Below are positions 49,576 to 62,902 of a DNA stretch of 64,000 nt, piece after piece; position 1 is the stretch's first letter, and every line of letters begins with the position of its first letter. The stretch covers positions 3,162,001 through 3,226,000 of the forward strand of contig NZ_AP028669.1 of NCBI RefSeq assembly GCF_041154485.1, written 5' to 3'. Under the pieces are notes generated by a model. That model made no database searches and was not told the DNA's origin. It saw only the letters and a program-made list of their open reading frames with translations. Source of the DNA: Variovorax sp. V93 (GTDB lineage Bacteria; Pseudomonadota; Gammaproteobacteria; Burkholderiales; Burkholderiaceae_C). The position numbers were made by a program, and so were the translations under genes.

Positions 49576-50808
49576 TCAGGCCAGGTCGTGCGAGAGCGGC
49601 ATGTCGATGCTGCCGTCGATCATCTTCATCGGCCCCGCTGCGTTCGGGTTGATGTCGAAGTCGAAGATCTGCGTGGGCAGCCAGAGCGTGGCGCAGGAGT
49701 TGGGCACGTCGACCACGCCGCTGATGTGGCCCTGCACGGGCGCGGTGCCCAGGATCGAGTAGGCCTGCGCGCCCGAGTAGCCGAATTTCTTCAGGTACTC
49801 GATGGCATTCAGGCAGGCCTGGCGGTAGGCCACGTTCACGTCCAGGTAGTACTGCTTGCCGGCCTCGTCGACCGAGATGCCTTCGAAGATCAGGTAGTCG
49901 TTGTACTGCGGCGTGATCGGGCTCGGCTTGAAGATCGGGTTCCTGATGCCGTACTTGGCCATGCCGCCCTTGATGAGCGTGACCTTCATGTGCACCCAGC
50001 CGGCCATCTCGATGGCGCCGCAGAAGGTGATCTCGCCATCGCCCTGGCTGAAGTGCAGGTCACCCACGCTGAGGCCCGCGCCATCGACGTACACCGGGAA
50101 GAACACCTTCGAGCCGCGCGACAGGTCCTTGATGTCGCAGTTGCCGCCGTGCTCGCGCGGCGGCACGGTGCGCGCGCCTTCGGCCGCCGCCCTGGCGCGC
50201 GCTTCGCCTGTCATCTTGCCCATGTGGGCGGTACCGGCGAACGGCGGATTGGCCAGGCCGGGCACGCGGTCCGGGTCGGTGGCGATGAGCTTGCCCTCGC
50301 GCTCGTTCCACATGTCAAGCATCGGCTTGTCCGGCAGGCAGCCGATCAGGCCGGGGTGGATCAGGCCCGCGAAGTTCACGCCCGGCACGTGGCGCGAGCT
50401 GGTGAACATGCCCTTGAAGTCCCAGATGGATTTCTGCGCTTCGGGAAAGTGGTCGGTCAGGAAGCCGCCGCCGTTCTTCTTCGAGAAGAAGCCGTTGAAG
50501 CCCCAGAGGCTGTCCTGCTTGGCGCCGATGTCGAGCAGGTCCACCACCAGCAGGTCGCCGGGCTCGGCGCCTTTCACGCCCACGGGGCCCGAGAGGTAGT
50601 GCACGGTGCTCAGGTCGATGTCGCGCACGTCGTCGGCGCTGTCGTTGTTCTTGATGAAGCCGCCGGTCCAGTCGAAGGTCTCGAGGATGAAATCGTCGCC
50701 CGGGTTGACCCAGCAGGCCATGGGAATGTCCGGATGCCAGCGGTTGTGGATCATCTCGTTCTCGGTGGGCGGCTTGGTCAGGTCGACCTTGATCAGCGTG
50801 TCCGTCAT
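49576..50808 (-). CDS. fmdA: Formamidase
   Basis: A 410-residue formamidase of the FmdA/AmdA acetamidase family. It hydrolyses formamide to formate and ammonia in the cytoplasm. Typical segments are ETFDWTGGFIKNNDSADDV near residues 43-62, DLSTVHYLSGPVGVKGAEPGD, and FSQGDGEITFCGAIEM. It lies 27 bases downstream of urtE in the same direction and before fmdB, so uptake and hydrolysis genes form one unit. This is the reason to read the transporter as an amide or urea system. Confidence 0.95.
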   Translation of the reverse strand: MTDTLIKVDLTKPPTENEMIHNRWHPDIPMACWVNPGDDFILETFDWTGGFIKNNDSADDVRDIDLSTVHYLSGPVGVKGAEPGDLLVVDLLDIGAKQDSLWGFNGFFSKKNGGGFLTDHFPEAQKSIWDFKGMFTSSRHVPGVNFAGLIHPGLIGCLPDKPMLDMWNEREGKLIATDPDRVPGLANPPFAGTAHMGKMTGEARARAAAEGARTVPPREHGGNCDIKDLSRGSKVFFPVYVDGAGLSVGDLHFSQGDGEITFCGAIEMAGWVHMKVTLIKGGMAKYGIRNPIFKPSPITPQYNDYLIFEGISVDEAGKQYYLDVNVAYRQACLNAIEYLKKFGYSGAQAYSILGTAPVQGHISGVVDVPNSCATLWLPTQIFDFDINPNAAGPMKMIDGSIDMPLSHDLA

Positions 50809-50835: not shown

Positions 50836-51537
50836 TTAAACGGAGAGATAGGCTTTGATGTGATCGACATCGGTCTTGTCGCGCGCCGTTTCGTGTACGA
50901 GCCGACCGCCTTCGATCACGAAGAGCCGGTCAGCCACGTCCAACGCAAAACTCAGCACCTGCTCGGACACGACGATGGTGATGCCGCGCAGCTTGCGGAT
51001 CTCGTTGAGCGCCTTGGCGATGTCCTTGATGATCGAAGGCTGGATTCCTTCGGTGGGCTCGTCGAGCAGCAGCACCTTGGGATCGGTGACGAGGGCGCGC
51101 GCAATGGCCAGCTGCTGCTGCTGGCCGCCGGAGAGGTTGCCGCCCTTGCGGCGCTTCATGTCCCAGAGCACGGGGAACAGGGCGTAGATCTCTTCGGGGA
51201 TGCGTTTTGTCTTCGAGTTCTCGAGGCCGGTCTGGATGTTCTCTTCCACCGTGAGGGTCGGGAAGATCATGCGGCCCTGCGGCACGTAGGCGATGCCCTT
51301 GGCGACGCGCCTGAAGCTCTCGTCGCGCGATACGTCCTGGCCCGCGACCTCGATGCGCCCGCTCCTGATGGGCAGCACGCCCATGAGGCTCTTGAACAGC
51401 GTGGTCTTGCCCATGCCGTTGCGGCCCATGATGGCCACGGTCTCGTTGGCATGGCCCTCGAAGGAAATGCCATGCAACGCCTCGCTCTGGCCGTAGGCTA
51501 CGTGCAGGTCTTCTACCTTCAGCATGATGTTGCTCAT
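50836..51537 (-). CDS. urtE: Urea/short-chain amide ABC transporter ATP-binding protein UrtE
   Basis: A 233-residue ABC ATPase of the LivF/UrtE type. Walker A is GRNGMGKTT, the signature LSGGQQQQLAIARAL, and Walker B LLLDEPTEGIQPS. It should power uptake with UrtD through the UrtB/UrtC permease. The ATG at 51537 is the conserved start MSNIMLKVEDLHVAYG; a longer frame reaches into a palindromic repeat and is rejected. A 302-base gap, mostly repeat, separates it from urtD. Confidence 0.93.
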   Translation of the reverse strand: MSNIMLKVEDLHVAYGQSEALHGISFEGHANETVAIMGRNGMGKTTLFKSLMGVLPIRSGRIEVAGQDVSRDESFRRVAKGIAYVPQGRMIFPTLTVEENIQTGLENSKTKRIPEEIYALFPVLWDMKRRKGGNLSGGQQQQLAIARALVTDPKVLLLDEPTEGIQPSIIKDIAKALNEIRKLRGITIVVSEQVLSFALDVADRLFVIEGGRLVHETARDKTDVDHIKAYLSV

Positions 51538-51561
51538 CGGGTGGCTCCTTTGATGCTCGTG

Positions 51562-51839: not shown

Positions 51840-52583
51840 CTAGTGCCCCAGATAAACGTCAATGACCTTCGGATCCGCCTGCACCTTCTCCATCGGCCCC
51901 TCGGCCAGGATCTTTCCCTGGTGCATCACCGTGACCTTGTGCGCGATCTGCTTCACGAACGCCATGTCGTGCTCTATGACGATCACCGCGCGGTTCTGGC
52001 AGATGCGCTTGAGCAGCTCGGCCGTGAGCTCGCGTTCACGGGCACTCATGCCGGCAATGGGCTCGTCGAGCATCAGTAACTCGGGCTCCTGCATCAGCAG
52101 CATGCCGATCTCCAGCCACTGCTTCTGGCCGTGGCTCAGCAGGCCCGCCTCGGTGCGCAGCCGGTCGGCCAGGCCGATGTCCTCGGCCACCGCCTGCACC
52201 TTGGCCTTGACCTCGTCGTCGCATTTGAACGCCAGCGCGCCGAGCACCGAGCGGCCTTTCGGAAAAGACACCTCGAGGTTCTGGAACACGCTGAGGTTCT
52301 CGTAGATCGACGGCGTCTGGAACTTGCGGCCGATGCCCAGCCGCACGCGCTTGTGCTCGGCCATCTTCGTGAGCTCGGTGTTCTTGAACTTGATGCTGCC
52401 GCCGCTGGCGCGCGTCTTGCCGCAGATCAGGTCGAGCAGCGTGGTCTTGCCCGCGCCGTTGGGGCCGATGATCACGCGCAGCTCGTTCCTGTCGATGTAG
52501 AGCGTGAGGTCGTCGATGGCCTTGAAGCCGTCGAACGAAACGCTGAGGTCTTCCACGGCAAGCGCGAAGTCGGTGTTGCTCAT
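51840..52583 (-). CDS. urtD: Urea/short-chain amide ABC transporter ATP-binding protein UrtD
   Basis: A 247-residue ABC ATPase of the LivG/UrtD type. Walker A is GPNGAGKTT, the signature is the UrtD-typical LSHGQKQWLEIG, and Walker B LLMLDEPIAGM. It pairs with UrtE on the permease. The start follows urtC by 17 bases. The right end is 20 bases from the palindromic element. The LSHGQ variant supports the Urt/Fmd branch over a Liv transporter. Confidence 0.93.
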   Translation of the reverse strand: MSNTDFALAVEDLSVSFDGFKAIDDLTLYIDRNELRVIIGPNGAGKTTLLDLICGKTRASGGSIKFKNTELTKMAEHKRVRLGIGRKFQTPSIYENLSVFQNLEVSFPKGRSVLGALAFKCDDEVKAKVQAVAEDIGLADRLRTEAGLLSHGQKQWLEIGMLLMQEPELLMLDEPIAGMSARERELTAELLKRICQNRAVIVIEHDMAFVKQIAHKVTVMHQGKILAEGPMEKVQADPKVIDVYLGH

Positions 52584-52600: not shown

Positions 52601-53809
52601 TCAGGCGCTCTGGCTGCCAACGCCTTCAGGCAACTGCGGTGCGGGCGAAGACGGCGAGGAAAGAGAGACAGGTGTGGGCGGCATCGGCGTGGATACGGGC
52701 GGCTTCACCGCGGCCTCGCGCAGCGCCTTGCGGCGCTCCTTCCACCAAGGCCTGATCTTTTCGTCCCAAAGGCCCGCGAGCCCCATCGGGAACGCCATGG
52801 TCACGCCGATGAAGAGGCCGGCCATCAGGAACAGCCACAGGTCCGGAAAGCTCTCCGAGAACAGCGTCTTTCCCGCATTGACCAGCAGCGCGCCGTACAC
52901 CGCGCCCACCAGGCTCATGCGGCCGCCCACGGCGCAGAAGATCACCATCTCGATCGACGGCACGATGCCCACGAAGCTCGGCGACATGAAGCCCACCTGC
53001 AGCGCGAACATCGCGCCGCCGATGCCCGAGAGCCCGGCCGCCAGGCAGAAGATGAAGACCTTGAAGTTCGACACGTCGTAGCCCGAGAAGCGCACGCGGT
53101 CTTCCTTGTCGCGCATGGCGAGCAGCAGCGTGCCGAGCTTGCTGGTCTGGATCCAGCGGCACAGCACGATGCTGGCGATCAGCAGGCCGACGCAGACGTA
53201 GTAGAGAACGTACTTGGCACCGTCAGTGCGCGTGTCCCAGCCCAGCATCGTCTTCAGGTCGGTCATGCCGTTGACGCCACCCGTGTAGCCCTGCTGGCCG
53301 ATGATGAGCACGGTGCAGATCAGCGCCACCGCCTGCGTGATGATCGCAAAGTACACGCCGCCCACGCGGCGCTTGAACATCGCAAAGCTCACCAGCCAGG
53401 CCAGCGCCATCGGCGCCAGCACCACCAGCGCCAGGCTCAGCGGCAGGCTCTTGAACGGCAGCCACAGCGCGGGCAGCTCGGTGATCTGGTTCCAGTCCAT
53501 GAAGTCCGGAATGCCGGGCGTCGACTGGATCTTGGTCGTAACGGGGTCGGAGGCTTCGAGCTTGAGGAACATCGCCATCGCGTAGCCGCCGATGCCGAAG
53601 AACACGCCCTGCCCCAGGCTCAGCACGCCGCCGTAGCCCCACACCATCACGAGGCCGACGGCCACGAAGGCATAGGTAAGGTACTTGCCCACCAGGTTGA
53701 GGCGAAAGATGTCGAGCGACAGCGGCAGCACGACCGCCAGCAGCAGCACCAGCAGCAAGAGGCTGCCGAGCTGGTAGCGCAGGATCGAGGCCTTGATGAA
53801 ATTCATCAT
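52601..53809 (-). CDS. urtC: Urea/short-chain amide ABC transporter permease UrtC
   Basis: A 402-residue permease of the LivM/UrtC type with about ten hydrophobic segments from residue 15 on. It has the conserved cytoplasmic loop region AMRDKEDRVRFSGYDVSNFKVFIFC that contacts the ATPase. The C-terminus is extended by about 50 polar, Pro-rich residues. It forms the membrane channel with UrtB. Located 31 bases after urtB and 17 bases before urtD. Confidence 0.93.
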   Translation of the reverse strand: MMNFIKASILRYQLGSLLLLVLLLAVVLPLSLDIFRLNLVGKYLTYAFVAVGLVMVWGYGGVLSLGQGVFFGIGGYAMAMFLKLEASDPVTTKIQSTPGIPDFMDWNQITELPALWLPFKSLPLSLALVVLAPMALAWLVSFAMFKRRVGGVYFAIITQAVALICTVLIIGQQGYTGGVNGMTDLKTMLGWDTRTDGAKYVLYYVCVGLLIASIVLCRWIQTSKLGTLLLAMRDKEDRVRFSGYDVSNFKVFIFCLAAGLSGIGGAMFALQVGFMSPSFVGIVPSIEMVIFCAVGGRMSLVGAVYGALLVNAGKTLFSESFPDLWLFLMAGLFIGVTMAFPMGLAGLWDEKIRPWWKERRKALREAAVKPPVSTPMPPTPVSLSSPSSPAPQLPEGVGSQSA

Positions 53810-53840: not shown

Positions 53841-54755
53841 TCAGCGGCGGACCTTGACGGCGAAGAGCCCTTGCGGCCGCATCATCAGGATCAGCACGAT
53901 CAGCGACAGCGTCAGCACCTTGGCCATCGAGCCGGTCATGAAGAACTCCGAGACCGATTGCGTCTGCGCAATGCCGAAGGCCGAGACCACGGTGCCCAGC
54001 AGGCTGGCCGCGCCGCCGAAAGTGACGACCAGGAAAGCGTCGACGATGTAGAGCGAGCCCGAGGTCGGCCCGGTCGAGCCGATGGTGGTGAAGGCCGCGC
54101 CCGCCACGCCGGCGATGCCGCAGCCGATCGCGAAGGTCAGGCGGTCGGTCTTCATGGTGTCGATGCCGGTAGCGTTGGCCATGGTGCGGTTGGCCACGGT
54201 GGCACGCACGCGCAGGCCCCAACGGCTCTTGTGCAGTGCGATCAGCACGCCGCCGGTCACAAGCGCGGTGAGCGCCAGCACGAACAGGCCGTTGATCGGA
54301 ATGTCGAGGCCCTCGTGCGGCGTCCACGAGCCCATGAGCCACTCGGGCAGCGTGGGGCTCACTTCCTTCGGGCCGATGAAGGTGCGAAAGATCTGCTGCA
54401 GCCCCAGGCTCACGCCCCAGGTGGCGAGCAGCGTGTCGAGCGGGCGCTTGTAGAGGTGGCGGATCAGCACCCACTCCACGATCCAGCCGACGATGAAGGC
54501 GAACACGAAGGCCAGGCCGATCGCGATCGGAAAGTAGTACGGCATGAACGCCGGCGCCAGGCTTTCGGTGACGCGCGCGGCCAGGTAGATGGAATAGGCG
54601 CCGATGGTCATGAACTCGCCATGCGCCATGTTGATCACGCCCATCTGGCCGAAGATGATCGCGAGCCCCAGGCCCATCAGCAACAGCACCGCGAAAAGGC
54701 TCAGCCCCGCGAAGCCCTGCATGAGGCCGATGTTCATCATGTCCGACAGAGTCAT
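53841..54755 (-). CDS. urtB: Urea/short-chain amide ABC transporter permease UrtB
   Basis: A 304-residue permease of the LivH/UrtB type with about eight hydrophobic segments, and the family pattern GQMGVINMAHGEFMTIGAYSIY and the loop VRATVANRTMANATGID. It forms the channel with UrtC. The ATG at 54755 is the conserved start MTLSDMMNIGLMQGF; longer frames run into a palindromic repeat. The gap to urtA (148 bases) holds that repeat. Confidence 0.93.
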   Translation of the reverse strand: MTLSDMMNIGLMQGFAGLSLFAVLLLMGLGLAIIFGQMGVINMAHGEFMTIGAYSIYLAARVTESLAPAFMPYYFPIAIGLAFVFAFIVGWIVEWVLIRHLYKRPLDTLLATWGVSLGLQQIFRTFIGPKEVSPTLPEWLMGSWTPHEGLDIPINGLFVLALTALVTGGVLIALHKSRWGLRVRATVANRTMANATGIDTMKTDRLTFAIGCGIAGVAGAAFTTIGSTGPTSGSLYIVDAFLVVTFGGAASLLGTVVSAFGIAQTQSVSEFFMTGSMAKVLTLSLIVLILMMRPQGLFAVKVRR

Positions 54756-54785
54756 GGCGACAGGTTCCAGGTGTTTGGGTATTGG

Positions 54786-54888
54786 CTCCTTCCCCCTCCG
54801 GGGGAAGGTTGGGATGGGGGCAGGCAGGGCGTGCCCATTGGCAACGCCGCTTGCCCCCACCCCTGCCCTCCCCCGGAAGGGGAGGGAG
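54786..54888. repeat. GC-rich palindromic repeat between urtA and urtB
   Basis: Arms 54786-54822 and 54852-54888 (37 bases each) are complementary with a few mismatches. Each arm contains its own small hairpin (TTCCCCCTCCGGGGGAA in the left one), and the centre (GGCGTGCCC / GGCAACGCC) can also pair. This CCCTCCGGGG-type sequence resembles dispersed intergenic repeats of betaproteobacteria. It could protect the upstream urtA message and lower expression of the downstream permease. Confidence 0.75.
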
Positions 54889-54903
54889 AAAGTCATCAGG
54901 GAT

Positions 54904-56172: not shown

Positions 56173-56422
56173 CGGGAAACTCCAGGCAGGTTGTTGGAAG
56201 GGTGAGCCGCGCACCATCACAGTGCATCGGACGGTGCCCCGAGCACCATGGCTGGTACTTTAGAAATCACCTGCGCCGCCGCGAATACGTCATTCAACGT
56301 AGCGGCCAGAGGTACGCCTGCATCCAGACTCGCAGGCCGTGCACAGGCGGACCGAATGCAGGGAGCGCTTCTTGCTGTGTCTGCCTGCCATGCCACCGCC
56401 GCCCTCACCGCCAGAGCCCACC

Positions 56423-59400
56423 ATGCCATCCGTCACCGGCCAGAAGATCTTTCGCATCCGCCGCGACTACAACGCGTGGGTTGCGAACGAGACGCTGGAG
56501 GACTACGCGCTGCGCTACACGCCGCGCAGCTTCCGCAAGTGGTCGGAGTTCCGCGTCGCCAACGCGGCCTTCGGCGCCACCTCGTTCCTGGCGCTGGAGG
56601 CCATCGGCGGCGCCATCGCGCTGAGCTACGGCTTCTCGAACGCGCTGTGGGCCATCCTGGTGGTGGGGCTCATCACCTTCCTCACCGGCCTGCCGATCTC
56701 CTACTACGCGGCCCGGCATGGCGTGGACATGGACCTGCTCACGCGCGGCGCGGGCTTCGGCTACCTGGGCTCCACCCTCACCTCGCTGATCTACGCGAGC
56801 TTCACCTTCATCTTCTTCGCGCTGGAGGCGGCCATCCTCGCGCTGGCGCTGCAGCTGTACCTCGACTGGCCGCTGCCGCTGCTCTACCTGATGTCGTCGA
56901 TCGTGATCGTGCCGCTGGTGATGCGCGGCATCACGCTGATCTCGGGCCTGCAGCTATGGACGCAGCCGATCTGGATCGTGCTGTTCGTGTGCCCGTTCAT
57001 CGCGGTGCTGGTGAAGAAGCCCGGGCTGTATGCCGACTTCACCGGCCTGGTGGGCCGCAGCTCCGACAGCAGCAGCTTCGATCCGCTGATGTTCGGCGCC
57101 GCCGCCACGGTGGCCTTCTCGCTGGTGGTGCAGATCGGCGAGCAGGTCGACTACCTGCGCTTCCTGCCCGAGAAGACAGCCGCCAACCGGGGCCGCTGGT
57201 GGGCCGCGGTGCTGGTGGCGGGCCCGGGCTGGATCGTGCCGGGCATGCTCAAGATGATGGGCGGCGCCTTCCTGGCCTTTCTGGCGCTGCAGCACGAGAT
57301 TCCCGCCAGGCACGCGGTCGAGCCCACGCTGATGTACCTCACGGGCTTTTCGTACGTGCTGCGCGACCCGGCCTGGGTGCTGGCGATCACCACGCTGTTC
57401 GTGGTGGTCTCGCAGATGAAGATCAACCTCACCAACGCCTATGCGGGCTCGCTGGCGTGGTCGAACTTCTTCGCGCGGCTCACGCACAGCCACCCGGGGC
57501 GCGTGGTGTGGCTGGTGTTCAACGTGGTGATCGCGATCCTGCTGATGACGCTGGGCGTGTTCGCGGCGCTCGAGCACGTGCTGGGCTTCTACAGCAACAT
57601 CGCCATTGCCTGGGTCGGCGCGCTGGTGGCCGACCTGGTCATCAACAAGCCGCTGGGCTGGAGCCCGCGCACCATCGAGTTCAAGCGCGCGCACCTGTAC
57701 GACATCAATCCGGTCGGCCTGGGTGCGATGCTGGTGGCGGCCGCGCTCGCCATGCTGGCGTATTCCGGCGTGCTGGGCCAGTGGGCGCGCGCGTTCTCGC
57801 CTTTCATCGCGCTGATCACGGCGCTTCTGGTCTCGCCGCTGCTGGCCTGGCGCACGCGCGGGCGCTACTACCTGGCGCGCAGCGACATCCGGCGCTGGAC
57901 GCCCGGGCAGATCGTGAAATGCTCGGTGTGCGACAACAGCTTCGAGTCGGAAGACATGGCGCACTGCCCGGCCTACAGCGCGCCGATCTGCTCGCTGTGC
58001 TGCACGCTCGAATCGCGCTGCCACGACCGCTGCAAGACCGATTCCCGCGCGGCCGAGCAGATGAGCGGCTGGCTCCAGGCGCTGCTGCCGCCCGCGCTGT
58101 CGGGCCGCCTCAACTTTCGCGTGGCGCACTACCTGATGGTGGCCACTTCGCTGGTGGCGCTGCTGGCCACGGTGATGGGCGTGGTGTATGCGCAGGAGGC
58201 CATCGTGGGCGCCGATGCGGTGGACCCGGCCCTGCGCAGCGCCTTCCTCAAGGTGTTCGCGCTGCTGTCGCTGGTGGCGGCGGTGGCCGCCTGGTGGATC
58301 GTGCTGGGCAGCGAGAGCCGGCAGATGGCGCAGGAGGAATCGAACCGCCACAACCACCTGCTCACCGTCGAGATCGAGGCGCATCAGCGCACCGACGCCG
58401 CCCTGCAGACTGCGAAGGAAGCCGCCGAAGCCGCCAACCAGGCCAAGACCCGCTACGTGGCCGGCATGACGCACGAGCTGCGCACGCCGCTCAACAGCAT
58501 CCTGGGCTACTCGCAGATCCTGCTCAAGGGCGAGGCCGTGGCGCCGCCGCGGGAAGCCGTGCAGACCATCCAGCGCAGCGGCGAGCACATGCTCGGGCTG
58601 ATCGACGGCCTGCTCGACCTCGCGCGCATCGAGGCCGGACGCTTGCAGCTGGAGCCCGCCCCGCTCGCGCTGCCGGCGTTTCTCGACGAAGTGGTGCACA
58701 TGGTGCGGCCGCAGGCGGAGAACAAGGGCCTTGCGTTCGTCTACACCCACAGCGGGCGGCTGCCGCCCTGGGTACATGCCGATGCCAAGCGGCTGCGCCA
58801 GATCCTCATCAACCTGCTGGCCAACGCGGTGCGCTTCACCGACAGCGGCACAGTCACGCTGCATGTCGACGCACGGCGCGAAGTGCTGCGCTTCGACGTG
58901 GTCGACACCGGCATCGGCGTGGCGCCGCAGGACCACCAGCGCATCTTTCTTCCGTTCGAGCGCGGCGCCGCGGGGCGCCGGCGCGGCGAGCCCGGCACGG
59001 GCCTCGGCCTCACCATCACGGGCCTGCTCACATCGCTGATGGGCGGCGAACTCGCGCTGGCCGCCACCTCGCCCGCGGGCAGCACCTTCAGCGTGCGGGT
59101 GTACCTGCGCGAAGTGGCCGACCCCGGCCCCCAGGCAGAAACACGGCGGCCGGTGTCGGGCTACATCGGCGCGCGCCGCACGCTGCTGGTGGTCGACGAC
59201 CAGCCGGTGCAGCGCCAGATGCTGGCCGGCATGCTCGCACCGCTGGGCTTCGAGGTGCGCGAGGCCGCGAGCGGCACCGAATGCCTGGACAGCCTGCGCG
59301 AGAACCTGCCTTCCGCCATCCTGCTGGACCTCACCATGGACGACATGGATGGCTGGCAGACCGCGGCACTGGTGCGCGCCTCGGGCTTCGACCGCCTGCC

Positions 59401-59812
59401 CATCATCATCGTCTCGGCCAACATGTTCGAGAACCAGGGCGAGCTGCTGCGCGCCGCGGGCTGCCAGGCCTTCGTGGGCAAGCCGGTCATCGAGTCGGAG
59501 CTGATCGCCACGCTGGAACGCCACCTCGGGCTCGAATGGCTGGCGTCGAGCGACGCCGCAATGCCGCCCGCCGTCGACATCGCGCCACGGCCGGTGCAGC
59601 TCGCGCTCTCGGAAGACGACCGCGCCGAGCTGATGCGGCTGGTGCAGATGGGCCACGTGCGCGGCCTGCACCAGGTGCTCGACCGGCTCGCCGCCGCATC
59701 CCCGCCGGCCGCGGCCACCTGCACCTGGCTGCGCGGCATGGTCAACCGTTTCGAACTCGACAAGCTCCGCAAGGCACTCGCAGAACAAGATGCAGACACT
59801 CTCGCCCCCTGA
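56423..59812 (+). CDS. NCS1-transporter-like hybrid sensor histidine kinase
   Basis: About 1129 residues if started at the ATG at 56423. Residues about 15-485 form a multi-spanning domain like the NCS1 nucleobase/allantoin/hydantoin permeases (start FRIRRDYNAWVANETLEDYALR). A cluster of eight cysteines lies at 500-537, then two more membrane segments (about 569-590 and 610-630), a short coiled coil, a HisKA domain with phospho-acceptor H684 (MTHELRTPLN), a HATPase domain with DTGIGVAP and GTGLGLTI, and a receiver with D969 in LLDLTMDDMDG. The last 80 residues resemble a weak Hpt-like helical tail without a clear histidine. It is probably a membrane sensor that uses a transporter fold to detect a ligand. 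The LuxR gene overlaps its end by 23 bases. Confidence 0.88.
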   Translation: MPSVTGQKIFRIRRDYNAWVANETLEDYALRYTPRSFRKWSEFRVANAAFGATSFLALEAIGGAIALSYGFSNALWAILVVGLITFLTGLPISYYAARHGVDMDLLTRGAGFGYLGSTLTSLIYASFTFIFFALEAAILALALQLYLDWPLPLLYLMSSIVIVPLVMRGITLISGLQLWTQPIWIVLFVCPFIAVLVKKPGLYADFTGLVGRSSDSSSFDPLMFGAAATVAFSLVVQIGEQVDYLRFLPEKTAANRGRWWAAVLVAGPGWIVPGMLKMMGGAFLAFLALQHEIPARHAVEPTLMYLTGFSYVLRDPAWVLAITTLFVVVSQMKINLTNAYAGSLAWSNFFARLTHSHPGRVVWLVFNVVIAILLMTLGVFAALEHVLGFYSNIAIAWVGALVADLVINKPLGWSPRTIEFKRAHLYDINPVGLGAMLVAAALAMLAYSGVLGQWARAFSPFIALITALLVSPLLAWRTRGRYYLARSDIRRWTPGQIVKCSVCDNSFESEDMAHCPAYSAPICSLCCTLESRCHDRCKTDSRAAEQMSGWLQALLPPALSGRLNFRVAHYLMVATSLVALLATVMGVVYAQEAIVGADAVDPALRSAFLKVFALLSLVAAVAAWWIVLGSESRQMAQEESNRHNHLLTVEIEAHQRTDAALQTAKEAAEAANQAKTRYVAGMTHELRTPLNSILGYSQILLKGEAVAPPREAVQTIQRSGEHMLGLIDGLLDLARIEAGRLQLEPAPLALPAFLDEVVHMVRPQAENKGLAFVYTHSGRLPPWVHADAKRLRQILINLLANAVRFTDSGTVTLHVDARREVLRFDVVDTGIGVAPQDHQRIFLPFERGAAGRRRGEPGTGLGLTITGLLTSLMGGELALAATSPAGSTFSVRVYLREVADPGPQAETRRPVSGYIGARRTLLVVDDQPVQRQMLAGMLAPLGFEVREAASGTECLDSLRENLPSAILLDLTMDDMDGWQTAALVRASGFDRLPIIIVSANMFENQGELLRAAGCQAFVGKPVIESELIATLERHLGLEWLASSDAAMPPAVDIAPRPVQLALSEDDRAELMRLVQMGHVRGLHQVLDRLAAASPPAAATCTWLRGMVNRFELDKLRKALAEQDADTLAP

Positions 59813-60695
59813 AACCGAACGCCCCGTGGTGCTGGTGGTGGATGACGCCCCCAGCAGCCTCGGCATGCTGTGCGACACGCTCGAATCCAGCGGCTACACC
59901 GTGCTCGTCGCGGCCGATGGCGAGGCTGCGCTGCAGCGCCTCGAACTGGTGGTGCCCGACGCGATCCTGCTCGACGGCCTGATGCCCGGCCTGTCGGGCT
60001 TCGAGACCTGCCGGCGCATCAAGGCCAATGCGGCGCTTGCGCACATTCCGGTGCTGTTCATGACCGGCCTCTCGGAGACGGCGCACGTGGTCGAGGGCTT
60101 CGAATGCGGCGGTGTCGACTACGTGGTGAAGCCGATCCGCGCGCAGGAGGTGCTGGCACGGCTGCACACCCACACGCGCAACGCACGCATCACGCGCATG
60201 GTGCGCGACGCGGTCGACGTGGCCGGCATGGGCGTGGTCTTCGTCGACGCGCGCGGGCGCATCGCATGGCGCTCGCCGCAGGCTGCGCTGTGGCTTCACG
60301 CACTCGATGCACCGCCGGCCGCCGGGCTGCTGCCCGCCTCGCTCGAACCCGCGCTGGCGCCTGGTGCAGCCATTGCGCTGGTCACCACGGCGGGTGCACG
60401 CATCTCGGTGCGCAACCTCGGCGCCGCGGCGCTCGGCGAGACCATGCTGCTGTTCGCGACGCAGCGCGAGGGGACCGCGGGCACGCCCTCGGCCCGGCTG
60501 ACCGAAGCGGCGCTCACGCCGCGCGAGACCGAAGTGCTCTCATGGCTCGCCAAGGGCAAGACCAACCGCGACATCGGCGAGATCCTCGGCACCAGTCCGC
60601 GCACGGTCAACAAGCATCTCGAGCACATCTTCGAGAAGCTGGGCGTCGAGACGCGCGCTGCCGCCGCGGCACTGGCCAGCGGGCAACTGGCCTGA
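59790..60695 (+). CDS. LuxR-type response regulator
   Basis: A 301-residue regulator. The receiver domain is at about residues 12-128 with D62 in AILLDGLMPG as phospho-acceptor and K in VVKPI; a middle segment (about 135-225) looks PAS-like; the LuxR helix-turn-helix is at about 235-295 (LTPRETEVLSWLAKGKTNRDIGEILGTS). Its start lies within the end of the kinase gene, so the two are translated together and form the cognate pair. The likely target is the divergent urtA operon, which is inference. Confidence 0.9.
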   Translation: MQTLSPPETERPVVLVVDDAPSSLGMLCDTLESSGYTVLVAADGEAALQRLELVVPDAILLDGLMPGLSGFETCRRIKANAALAHIPVLFMTGLSETAHVVEGFECGGVDYVVKPIRAQEVLARLHTHTRNARITRMVRDAVDVAGMGVVFVDARGRIAWRSPQAALWLHALDAPPAAGLLPASLEPALAPGAAIALVTTAGARISVRNLGAAALGETMLLFATQREGTAGTPSARLTEAALTPRETEVLSWLAKGKTNRDIGEILGTSPRTVNKHLEHIFEKLGVETRAAAAALASGQLA

Positions 60696-61339: not shown

Positions 61340-62491
61340 TCACGCGCCGTCCGGGGCCACCTGCTTGCCGCCGCGGGGCAGATGGACGGTGAAGGCCGTT
61401 CCTTCTTCCGCGGAGGAGGCCACCGTGATGGTGCCACCGTGTCCTGTCACGATCTCACGCGCAATGTAGAGGCCGAGGCCCAGGCTCGTGGCGGGACGCT
61501 CATGCGGTGCCGATTCGCGCGTTGCAACCTGCACCAGCGGATTGAAGATCACCTGCATCGAATCGGGAGCAATCGGCCTTCCCTGGTTCCTGACGATCAG
61601 GGTCACATGCGCGCCCTCGTCCCGGATCACCAGCGCGACGGGATGGGAGGGGTCTCCATGCTGCACGGCGTTGCTCAGCAGGTTGGTGAGGACCTGGCGC
61701 ATCCTGGGTGCGTCGAACATCAGGACCACGTCGGTCGGAATCTCGGCGACGAGCACCCGCTTGGGATAGGCCGCGCAGACCTCGTCGAAAGCCTCCTGGC
61801 ACAGGGCGCTCAGGCTGCCTTGCTGGGGAATCACCTCGATGCCGCGGCCGAGCCGGGTGCGCGTGTACTCGAGCAGGTCGGTGACCATGTCGTTGATCGA
61901 CGCGATGCTTCGCCTGGCGATCTGGAGCGTGCGCGCCCTGGGCTTGGCCTCGCCCCCCAGCTCGAGCAGATGGATGCAGGAGCTGAGCGCACTCAACGGG
62001 TTTCGCAGGTCGTGGCCCAGCACGGCCAGGAAGGTGTCCCTGGAATTGGCCACATGGTCCGAATAGGTGGCCATGGCTTCGGCCAGGCCCTGGTCGATGC
62101 CTTCGTTGAAGCGCACCACTTCTTCCAGGACCGCCGCATCGACCGTGCCGATGTGCCCCATCCACAAGCGAAGAACCGTGGCCCGCAGCGCGCGATATTC
62201 GGCGCCCAGCTGGGAGAGGTCGAACCCCACGCGCTGGCGCAGGCCGCCGTGTTCGGCGGCAAAAGTCTCTTTCAGGAACGGCACCGCGAGCCCCTTGGAC
62301 TTTGCCTCGCGCTCCTTTTCCGACTGGGCCGATTCCATTTCGCCGGCAATAGCCAGCAGGATTTCATGCGCATGGTCGCGCAGTTCGACGACGGACATGG
62401 TCTCCGCCGGCGGGATCATCGTTCGTGCGAAGGATTCCCACTCGACAAGAATGGGTTCGATGTTGTCCTTGATGAATTGGCTCAGGCGCAT
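61340..62491 (-). CDS. Sensor histidine kinase with RsbRD-like N-terminal helical domain
   Basis: A 383-residue cytoplasmic kinase without membrane helices. The N-terminal 140 residues are helical and similar in outline to the RsbRD/stress-sensor N-terminal domain (LSQFIKDNIEPILVEWESFAR). HisKA has H160 in LGHDLRNPLSAL; the HATPase domain ends with LGLGLYIAREIVTGHGG. No response regulator is adjacent, so its partner is elsewhere. It may respond to a soluble signal. The ATG at 62491 gives the conserved start; longer frames reach into the divergent gene region. Downstream, the Gly-rich gene is in the same direction after 162 bases. Confidence 0.85.
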   Translation of the reverse strand: MRLSQFIKDNIEPILVEWESFARTMIPPAETMSVVELRDHAHEILLAIAGEMESAQSEKEREAKSKGLAVPFLKETFAAEHGGLRQRVGFDLSQLGAEYRALRATVLRLWMGHIGTVDAAVLEEVVRFNEGIDQGLAEAMATYSDHVANSRDTFLAVLGHDLRNPLSALSSCIHLLELGGEAKPRARTLQIARRSIASINDMVTDLLEYTRTRLGRGIEVIPQQGSLSALCQEAFDEVCAAYPKRVLVAEIPTDVVLMFDAPRMRQVLTNLLSNAVQHGDPSHPVALVIRDEGAHVTLIVRNQGRPIAPDSMQVIFNPLVQVATRESAPHERPATSLGLGLYIAREIVTGHGGTITVASSAEEGTAFTVHLPRGGKQVAPDGA

Positions 62492-62617
62492 GCAGGGCGG
62501 AGTATGCACCCCGTGCAGGGCGGCAAGAGGCACGGCGAACAACGGCTGGACAGGCGCCGGGAAAAAGGGGTAATCGATGAAGCGTATCCTGGGGCCTCTC
62601 GAACCGGAACACATTCC

Positions 62618-62902
62618 ATGCCTGAACAGCCTCCATCCGGGACCGATCCCCTCGATCCTCCCTTCTTCCACGAGGCCTCCGGCACGGTCCGCTTCTGGGT
62701 GCTCATCGATGGCCAGCACATGGGCGCGAGCATCAGCAGGGATGTCCTGCGCTACCGCTTCCGGCCCGGCGCGCAGGGCGACGACCCGATGGAAATCTAC
62801 GCGCAGTACGCGGACCAGCTCGAAGCGGCCGTGCGCCGGCGGGCGGCGCAGGGCTCGATCGAGCCCGTGATGCTGCGCGAGTTCGATCTACCCCGCGATT
62901 GA
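62618..62902 (+). CDS. DUF1488-like small protein
   Basis: A 94-residue protein that fits the DUF1488 family in size and pattern: VRFWVLIDGQHMGASISRDVLRYRF at about residues 25-48 with a C-terminal helical half ending in LREFDLPRD. The function of DUF1488 proteins is unknown. It is divergent from the kinase gene and its last 15 bases overlap the convergent EamA gene. The start at 62618 is chosen by family length; an ATG at 62577 is in another frame. Confidence 0.7.
   Translation: MPEQPPSGTDPLDPPFFHEASGTVRFWVLIDGQHMGASISRDVLRYRFRPGAQGDDPMEIYAQYADQLEAAVRRRAAQGSIEPVMLREFDLPRD

What the first reader, a model, noticed from the sequence alone, without database searches (positions are those of the whole stretch)
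56423..59812. Histidine kinase fused to an NCS1 transporter domain
The protein joins a full-length NCS1-like permease fold (about 470 residues) to a cytoplasmic kinase and receiver. Transporter-kinase fusions with other transporter families are known (for example the SLC5 domain of CbrA), but an NCS1-type sensor of nucleobase, allantoin or hydantoin-like ligands is unusual. The sequence shows the domain order; ligand and signalling role are inference.
Basis: partly seen in the sequence, partly recalled or inferred. Interest (0 to 1): 0.75.

Follow-up and report, generated by a model that had tools for sequence, protein, structure and literature searches.

The report
Transporter-fused kinase sensing urea-like amides
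A soil bacterium carries a sensor protein that joins a nutrient-transporter-like membrane domain to a signalling kinase, and its gene neighbourhood across many bacteria suggests that it switches on genes for using urea and small amides such as formamide.

Summary
The gene is real and intact: 1129 codons at 56423-59812, ending in a histidine kinase and receiver. Pfam finds no NCS1 match, but the N-terminal ~460 residues are NCS1-type by profile-profile comparison (probability 99.7%, E 1.4e-24; SSS and APC decoys under 1%). In 80 of 86 copies from 80 genomes a urea-transporter, urease or formamidase gene lies within 10 kb. The window copy is divergent from urtABCDE-fmdA; a second copy in the same genome sits beside urease. 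A palindrome, TACGT-N6-ACGTA, lies between urtA and the kinase gene; in 80 loci 59 of 60 exact copies precede urtA/kinase, fmdA or amiE, and a fuller pattern occurs once in the whole genome. Best reading: an NCS1-derived receptor for urea and/or short amides driving a LuxR-type regulator. Two features stand out: an invariant lysine where NCS1 symporters bind sodium, and an eight-cysteine module between transporter and kinase. A new variant of the transporter-kinase ('transceptor') kind.

The parts
56423..59812 (+). Hybrid sensor histidine kinase with N-terminal NCS1-type domain, 1129 aa
   Evidence: Open frame; Pfam domains; relatives of the same architecture
56498..57886 (+). NCS1-type membrane domain, residues about 26-488
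   Evidence: hhalign 99.7% to NCS1, decoys under 1%; PRK11017 hit 26-445; hydropathy
57920..58036 (+). Eight-cysteine module, residues 500-538 (C-x2-C-x11-C-x7-C-x2-CC-x5-C-x3-C-K)
   Evidence: Six Cys in 213 of 213 rows, two in 212 with one row a gap; no Pfam family; in DNA held only in these kinases
58109..58321 (+). Two further predicted transmembrane helices, residues about 563-633
   Evidence: Hydropathy only
58442..58639 (+). HisKA; phosphoacceptor His684
   Evidence: Pfam 8.5e-19; His in 140 of 140 full-length rows
58781..59107 (+). HATPase_c
   Evidence: Pfam 3.3e-23
59186..59515 (+). Receiver domain; phosphoacceptor Asp969
   Evidence: Pfam 2.3e-18; Asp in 138 of 140 rows, one Ala, one gap
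59790..60695 (+). LuxR/NarL-type response regulator (receiver plus GerE), predicted partner; with the ATG at 59790 it overlaps the kinase gene by 23 bp (start uncertain)
   Evidence: Pfam; a similar gene in 60 of 80 related loci
56286..56301 (.). Predicted operator TACGTCATTCAACGTA between urtA and the kinase gene
   Evidence: Found de novo; 59 of 60 exact copies in 80 loci precede urtA/kinase, fmdA or amiE; fuller pattern once in the own genome
54904..56220 (-). urtA, substrate-binding protein (start uncertain)
   Evidence: TIGR03407 518.5 bits, cut-off 492.75
53841..54896 (-). urtB permease (start uncertain)
   Evidence: TIGR03409 389.9 bits, cut-off 250.3
52601..53809 (-). urtC permease
   Evidence: TIGR03408 432.2 bits, cut-off 296.2
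51840..52583 (-). urtD ATPase
   Evidence: TIGR03411 377.5 bits, cut-off 304.1
50836..51549 (-). urtE ATPase (start uncertain)
   Evidence: TIGR03410 336.1 bits, cut-off 285.8
49576..50808 (-). fmdA formamidase
   Evidence: NF045496 768.3 bits, cut-off 500; PF03069

Best explanation
The protein is the sensor of a urea / short-chain-amide two-component system. An NCS1-type membrane domain has been turned into a receptor that binds urea or a small amide (formamide, acetamide) in the old substrate pocket. Invariant Lys333 sits where NCS1 symporters place the Na2 sodium ion, so ligand binding alone, without sodium, would shift the domain's conformation. The shift passes through the eight-cysteine module (probably metal-bound, in the place where CbrA has its STAC domain) and the TM13-14 hairpin to the DHp helices, changing phosphorylation of His684 and, through or alongside Asp969, of the LuxR-type regulator encoded next to it. 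The phosphorylated regulator binds the TACGT-N6-ACGTA palindrome and switches on urtABCDE-fmdA and, in relatives, fmdA or amiE separately. A second copy beside urease would do the same for urease. Shown: gene, domains, NCS1 homology, gene neighbourhood, conserved residues, the palindrome's placement. Inferred: ligand, direction of signalling, sodium independence, metal, regulator-palindrome contact.
For: Profile homology to NCS1 and not to SSS or APC. All five Urt proteins and FmdA next door pass their NCBIfam cut-offs. Urea/amide genes within 10 kb in 80 of 86 copies and in 70 of 80 named loci; UreC in 40 of 43 kinase-bearing against 60 of 207 other genomes of the order sample (p 1.7e-15, relatedness not corrected). 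Both copies in the own genome lie at urea genes. FmdA without UrtA or UreC beside two diverged copies. Palindrome: 60 exact copies in 1.48 Mb against 1.0 in shuffles, 59 of 60 before urtA/kinase, fmdA or amiE; fuller pattern once in the own genome, reversed control 0. The nearest stand-alone relative lies in an amidase / AmiC-like / AmiR-like operon. Lys at the Na2 position in 33 of 33 kinases, Arg in 7 of 8 stand-alone relatives, Lys/Arg in 0 of 35 NCS1. Sensor more conserved than kinase in 20 of 20 loci that I chose.
Against: No ligand was tested and no structure could be predicted. No urea gene lies near 6 of 86 copies; one of these is at a contig end, and two (G061, G068) had no UreC match in the genome and may sense something else. 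No shared palindrome was found in the urease-linked and related clade, 10 of 59 divergent loci lack an exact copy, 3 of 9 Variovorax genomes have no match to the fuller pattern, and the reversed control pattern matched once in each of two of them. Sodium-site Ser/Thr are also missing in many ordinary NCS1 sequences (Gly in 11 of 35), so loss alone is not special; only the Lys/Arg is.
Confidence: 0.58

Rival explanations
1. The domain is still an active permease for urea or short amides, and the kinase reads the transport cycle (a true transceptor, as proposed for CbrA).
For: Full-length NCS1 homology; pocket and gate positions N335, N338, Y340, R246, D243 kept in 213 of 213 rows; transport by CbrA is reported (PMC7096432, search listing only).
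Against: Lys333 replaces the sodium ligand and the TM6 aromatic is leucine in one of three alignments; an ABC importer is encoded next door.
Confidence: 0.22
2. The transporter domain is only an anchor; the eight-cysteine module senses a metal (nickel, zinc) or redox state, or the kinase reads nitrogen status.
For: The Cys module is as strict as the pocket; the urease-linked copy in the own genome also lies near a HupE/UreJ gene, a family with putative nickel transporters (recalled).
Against: A mere anchor would not be the best conserved part: 61-75% identity against 47-72% for the kinase, higher in 20 of 20 chosen loci. The palindrome also precedes amiE, which as a nitrilase-family amidase needs no metal (recalled).
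Confidence: 0.12
3. One reading: a sensor of nucleobase, allantoin or hydantoin-like ligands.
For: NCS1 homology; two stand-alone relatives lie beside hydantoinase-family genes.
Against: No nucleobase, allantoin or hydantoin gene turned up among the kinase-neighbour genes scanned (a chosen part of them), against urea/amide genes at 80 of 86 copies; the one match to the fuller operator pattern in the own genome is at urtA.
Confidence: 0.06

Closest known systems
CbrA, CrbS, RpuS: SLC5/STAC histidine kinases
   Same: Transporter-like membrane domain, linker module, kinase; CrbS is a hybrid kinase whose LuxR-family regulator needs an inverted repeat (PMC5715377, abstract and passages)
   Different: SLC5 (SSS) transporter, not NCS1 (hhalign 0.35% here); STAC linker instead of an eight-Cys module; histidine, acetate or pyruvate systems (listings)
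Ks-Amt5 ammonium sensor kinase (PMC5764959, abstract in search listing only; the protein name is recalled)
   Same: Transporter fold used as the sensor of a histidine kinase for a nitrogen compound
   Different: Amt fold; no Amt match in Pfam here
NCS1 transporters Mhp1 (2jln) and CodB (7qoa)
   Same: Homologous domain; Asn, Arg, Tyr and Asp positions kept
   Different: Lys at the sodium site, Glu for Mhp1 Gln121, Phe for Trp117; fused to a kinase
AmiC/AmiR amide sensing of aliphatic amidase operons (recalled)
   Same: Similar regulon: amide uptake and amidase
   Different: There a soluble amide-binding regulator and an antiterminator; here a membrane kinase and a LuxR-type regulator

Membership tests
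NCS1 (PF02133, TC 2.A.39) | Reaches the Pfam gathering score | tested here: not met
   No match, whole protein E up to 1, residues 1-560 E up to 0.01
NCS1 (PF02133, TC 2.A.39) | Full-length profile homology to NCS1 rather than to other LeuT-fold families | tested here: met
   99.7%, E 1.4e-24, 423 columns; SSS 0.35%, APC 0.09%
NCS1 (PF02133, TC 2.A.39) | 12 transmembrane helices | tested here: inconclusive
   Hydropathy lists 12 segments in residues 48-480, but two overlap (261-290) and one stretch (356-413) could hold two helices
NCS1 (PF02133, TC 2.A.39) | Aromatic pair sandwiching the substrate (Mhp1 Trp117, Trp220) | tested here: inconclusive
   Trp117 position Phe in 29 of 33, Leu in 4; Trp220 position Leu in 32 of 33 in one alignment mode, a gap in two
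NCS1 (PF02133, TC 2.A.39) | Na2 sodium ligands Ser/Thr on TM8 | tested here: not met
   Lys333-Ile334 at CodB Thr278-Thr279 and Mhp1 Ser312-Thr313 in three alignment modes
NCS1 (PF02133, TC 2.A.39) | Cation-coupled transport | not testable with these tools
   Needs an uptake assay
SLC5/STAC histidine kinases (CbrA type) | SLC5/SSS membrane domain | tested here: not met
   hhalign 0.35%; no SSF match
SLC5/STAC histidine kinases (CbrA type) | STAC linker domain | tested here: inconclusive
   No Pfam family in residues 489-640; not compared with a STAC profile
Amt-type sensor kinases | Ammonium transporter domain | tested here: not met
   No Amt match in Pfam
Hybrid histidine kinase | HisKA, HATPase_c and receiver with phosphoacceptors | tested here: met
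   His684 140 of 140, Asp969 138 of 140
NarL/LuxR-type response regulator (59790-60695) | Receiver plus GerE helix-turn-helix | tested here: met
   4.8e-24 and 1.4e-18

The most novel reading that the evidence does not exclude
A transporter turned receptor: an NCS1 fold with a built-in lysine in place of sodium, forming with the eight-cysteine module and the TM hairpin a portable sensory cassette for urea and small amides that evolution has grafted onto several different kinases in Proteobacteria and Cyanobacteria. It would be a dedicated bacterial membrane receptor for urea.
Probability: 0.35. Interest if true: 0.8.

Novelty: new variant of a known kind. Interest (0 to 1): 0.62.

Why it matters
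The transporter-kinase fusions that my searches brought up use the SLC5 or Amt folds. This family adds a third fold, one with known outward-open and occluded structures (Mhp1, CodB), a simple candidate ligand, a predicted operator and a small predicted regulon, so how a transporter fold becomes a signal receptor can be tested directly. It also offers a candidate answer to how many soil bacteria and pseudomonads detect urea and formamide, which matters for nitrogen turnover in soil.

Tried and rejected
Nucleobase/hydantoin ligand: rejected as first choice because of neighbours and operator sites. SSS or APC origin of the domain: rejected by hhalign. Direct match of the family profile to a solved structure: no transporter found; only two weak hits of the Cys module to zinc-finger-like proteins, E 2 and 3.2, not significant. 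C-terminal tail as HPt domain: thought unlikely, His1078 is Tyr in 17 of 140 rows, so how the receiver and the separate regulator share phosphate stays open. Common palindrome upstream of urease-linked and related copies: none found. Own-genome PF02133 hit L002 lies in a 1078-aa open frame and at first looked like a fusion; its frame shows permease-like letters and no kinase that I could see, and I did not scan it. Context and tree: fmdA/urt-linked and urease-linked copies cluster (5 changes over 76 labelled rows, labels assigned by hand) but are not two clean clades (quick tree, long outgroup branch flagged by the tool).

Literature: no paper describing an NCS1-kinase was found; the library lacks most subscription journals.
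Full report
The gene. One open frame runs from ATG 56423 to the stop at 59812, 1129 aa. Pfam places HisKA, HATPase_c and a receiver in residues 674-1031. A protein search with residues 1-560 scored 8000 candidates (its limit) and all 8000 were relatives at E up to 0.001; of the 120 listed, 117 have all three kinase-side domains, and the closest named ones are Variovorax. Some source annotations already say 'signal transduction histidine kinase/.../purine-cytosine permease-like', so the architecture is visible in automatic annotation.

Is it NCS1? Pfam says no (E up to 1; N-terminal part, E up to 0.01). NCBIfam gives cytosine permease PRK11017 at E 3.9e-7, far under its cut-off. BLASTP links the domain at E 4.5e-37 to a stand-alone protein, L056, that passes the PF02133 cut-off. 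Of the nine stand-alone relatives L056-L064, four pass that cut-off, three match below it and two show no match. A profile of 33 N-terminal domains against 35 NCS1 domains picked by Pfam gives probability 99.7%, E 1.4e-24, over 423 columns; against 24 SSS and 21 APC domains 0.35% and 0.09% (1, 1 and 4 fetched domains were dropped because they did not translate cleanly). I take NCS1 homology as shown.

Residues. In three MAFFT modes Mhp1 Gln121 aligns with Glu135, Trp117 with Phe131, Ser312 with Lys333, Thr313 with Ile334, Asn314 with Asn335, Asn318 with Asn338; CodB Thr278 (sodium ligand) with Lys333, Arg216 with Arg246 and Tyr285 with Tyr340. The roles of these residues are from passages of PMC4195764 and PMC9379551; that Ser312 and Thr313 are the Mhp1 sodium ligands is recalled, the CodB ones are. 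Over 213 kinase rows (the 120 listed proteins, 79% identical to the window or more, plus 93 from loci and the window) Lys333, Asn335, Asn338, Tyr340, Arg246, Asp243, Gln237, Glu240 and His357 never vary; Glu135 is Asp once. Of eight stand-alone relatives seven have Arg and one Thr at the lysine position, and none of 35 NCS1 sequences has Lys or Arg there (one has His). The TM6 aromatic is Leu in one alignment mode and a gap in two, so its loss is likely, not certain.

Cysteine module. Residues 500-537 hold eight of the protein's twelve cysteines: six are present in 213 of 213 rows, two in 212 with one gap. In six-frame translations of the loci held and the window (19011 frames; overlapping loci are counted more than once), 150 frames carry the module and all 150 also carry the NCS1-kinase N-terminus; the 2 N-terminal hits without it are two views of one stand-alone gene. 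It sits where CbrA has its STAC domain (PMC13022988, abstract and passages). Metal binding is a guess from the spacing.

Neighbourhood. On the minus strand next to the kinase gene lie urtA, urtB, urtC, urtD, urtE and fmdA; all six products pass their NCBIfam cut-offs. The second copy in the same genome lies with its own LuxR-type regulator beside genes for HupE/UreJ, urease beta and alpha, UreE, UreF and a CobW/HypB/UreG-type protein. In 80 named loci (the 80 best of at least 579, so weighted to near relatives) 65 have UrtA, 44 FmdA, 11 urease genes, 70 any of the Urt, Ure or FmdA genes, 60 a similar regulator; of the 52 with full flanks 44, 34, 9, 47 and 42. Some of these UrtA matches are only about 40% identical and may be a second transporter type. 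In genomes drawn evenly from order and phylum, 85 had a strong hit by my count; 5 with the kinase on contigs under 20 kb were dropped to meet the limit of 80 handles. Of 86 copies in the remaining 80 genomes, 73 have UrtA, 34 UreC and 58 FmdA within 20 kb; 80 have at least one within 10 kb (place lists were typed by hand, leaving out places on other contigs or far away, and the UrtA list was cut by the tool, so counts are lower bounds). The 6 others are G111, G047, G205, G061, G068 and G356 (contig end). UreC is present in 40 of 43 genomes of the order sample with the kinase (one a contig-end fragment) and 60 of 207 without; Fisher p 1.7e-15, not corrected for relatedness. Three weak hits in that sample were counted as lacking the kinase, because their open frames are only 450-458 aa.

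Predicted operator. A count of dyads upstream of 30 kinase genes (the window and 29 loci that I chose) gave TACGT-N6-ACGTA in 21. In the 80 loci (1.48 Mb) there are 60 exact copies, in 49 loci, with 1.0 expected from simple shuffles; 48 lie before the divergent urtA/kinase pair, 8 before fmdA, 3 before amiE (one of these proteins scanned: aliphatic amidase NF009802) and 1 is unassigned (the 80-locus split is my subtraction of the window and the 9 site-selected Variovorax loci from the 70 sites). Among all 1024 half-sites it has the highest count, although GC-rich half-sites reach 55; among the 60 permutations of its own letters the next has 7. Of 59 divergent loci 49 have an exact copy, and 6 of the other 10 have one with a single mismatch (no chance control for these). 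The fuller pattern TACGTYRNNYRACGTA occurs once in the own 6.74 Mb genome, at 56286-56301 (reversed control 0), and 9 times in 9 Variovorax genomes, 6 of which have it; all 9 are at urtA/kinase (6) or amiE (3). The reversed control matched once in each of two of those genomes, and I did not check whether the 3 genomes without a site have the kinase. Within the window alone, matches with up to 2 mismatches are not above chance (1 against 0.52). That the regulator binds the palindrome is inference.

Evolution. The sensor is better conserved than the kinase in 20 of 20 full-length loci that I chose and compared with the window, 61-75% against 47-72%. In four cyanobacterial loci the N-terminal domain is 59-62% identical while the kinase part matches at 23-26% in two and not over half its length in the other two; all four have HATPase_c and a HisKA match (weak in L135 and L149) and no receiver. 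The distant L065 has PAS and Hpt domains in addition, L066 two receiver matches and Hpt. This fits a sensory cassette grafted onto different kinases. Stand-alone relatives lie with an amidase-family, an AmiC-like and an AmiR-like gene (L164), hydantoinase-family genes (L166, L167) or a carboxyltransferase-domain gene (L165).

Already in print. A Dechloromonas aromatica genome table lists a 1131-aa 'histidine kinase' and a receiver protein beside UrtA (PMC2907700, passages), and an Ectopseudomonas paper notes a LuxR-family two-component regulator, and in a figure legend a hybrid kinase, with a second urtABCDE (PMC13296017, passages). In the passages I saw, neither names the transporter domain. 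A review of formamide use, seen in passages only, gave nothing on this system (PMC10781810). Passages of PMC11109136 gave nothing on NCS1. Absence of a dedicated paper rests.

Verdict. Real gene, real NCS1-type sensor domain, and a urea/short-amide role well supported by context. Ligand and mechanism await experiment.

Noticed in passing
61340-62719: A second histidine kinase on the minus strand, with an N-terminal RsbRD_N domain (PF14361, 26.7 bits, cut-off 24.3) and HisKA/HATPase_c.
   Followed up: no
L164:9949-14984: An NCS1-type permease in an operon-like run with a carbon-nitrogen hydrolase, an AmiC-like and an AmiR-like gene; possibly it takes the place of the usual amide channel.
   Followed up: partly
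L065:4671-8813, L066:5142-9263: Diverged NCS1-kinases of 1380 and 1373 aa with Hpt domains and no UrtA, UreC or FmdA match within 20 kb; they may sense another ligand.
   Followed up: partly
L067:4349-5509, L068:3401-4666: Receiver plus HATPase proteins encoded between receiver-less NCS1-kinases and fmdA, a split signalling arrangement.
   Followed up: no
L140:21277: The one exact copy of the palindrome in 80 loci not assigned to urtA/kinase, fmdA or amiE.
   Followed up: no
L126, L135, L141, L149: Cyanobacterial copies with a 59-62% identical sensor but a weakly related or differing kinase part without receiver.
   Followed up: partly
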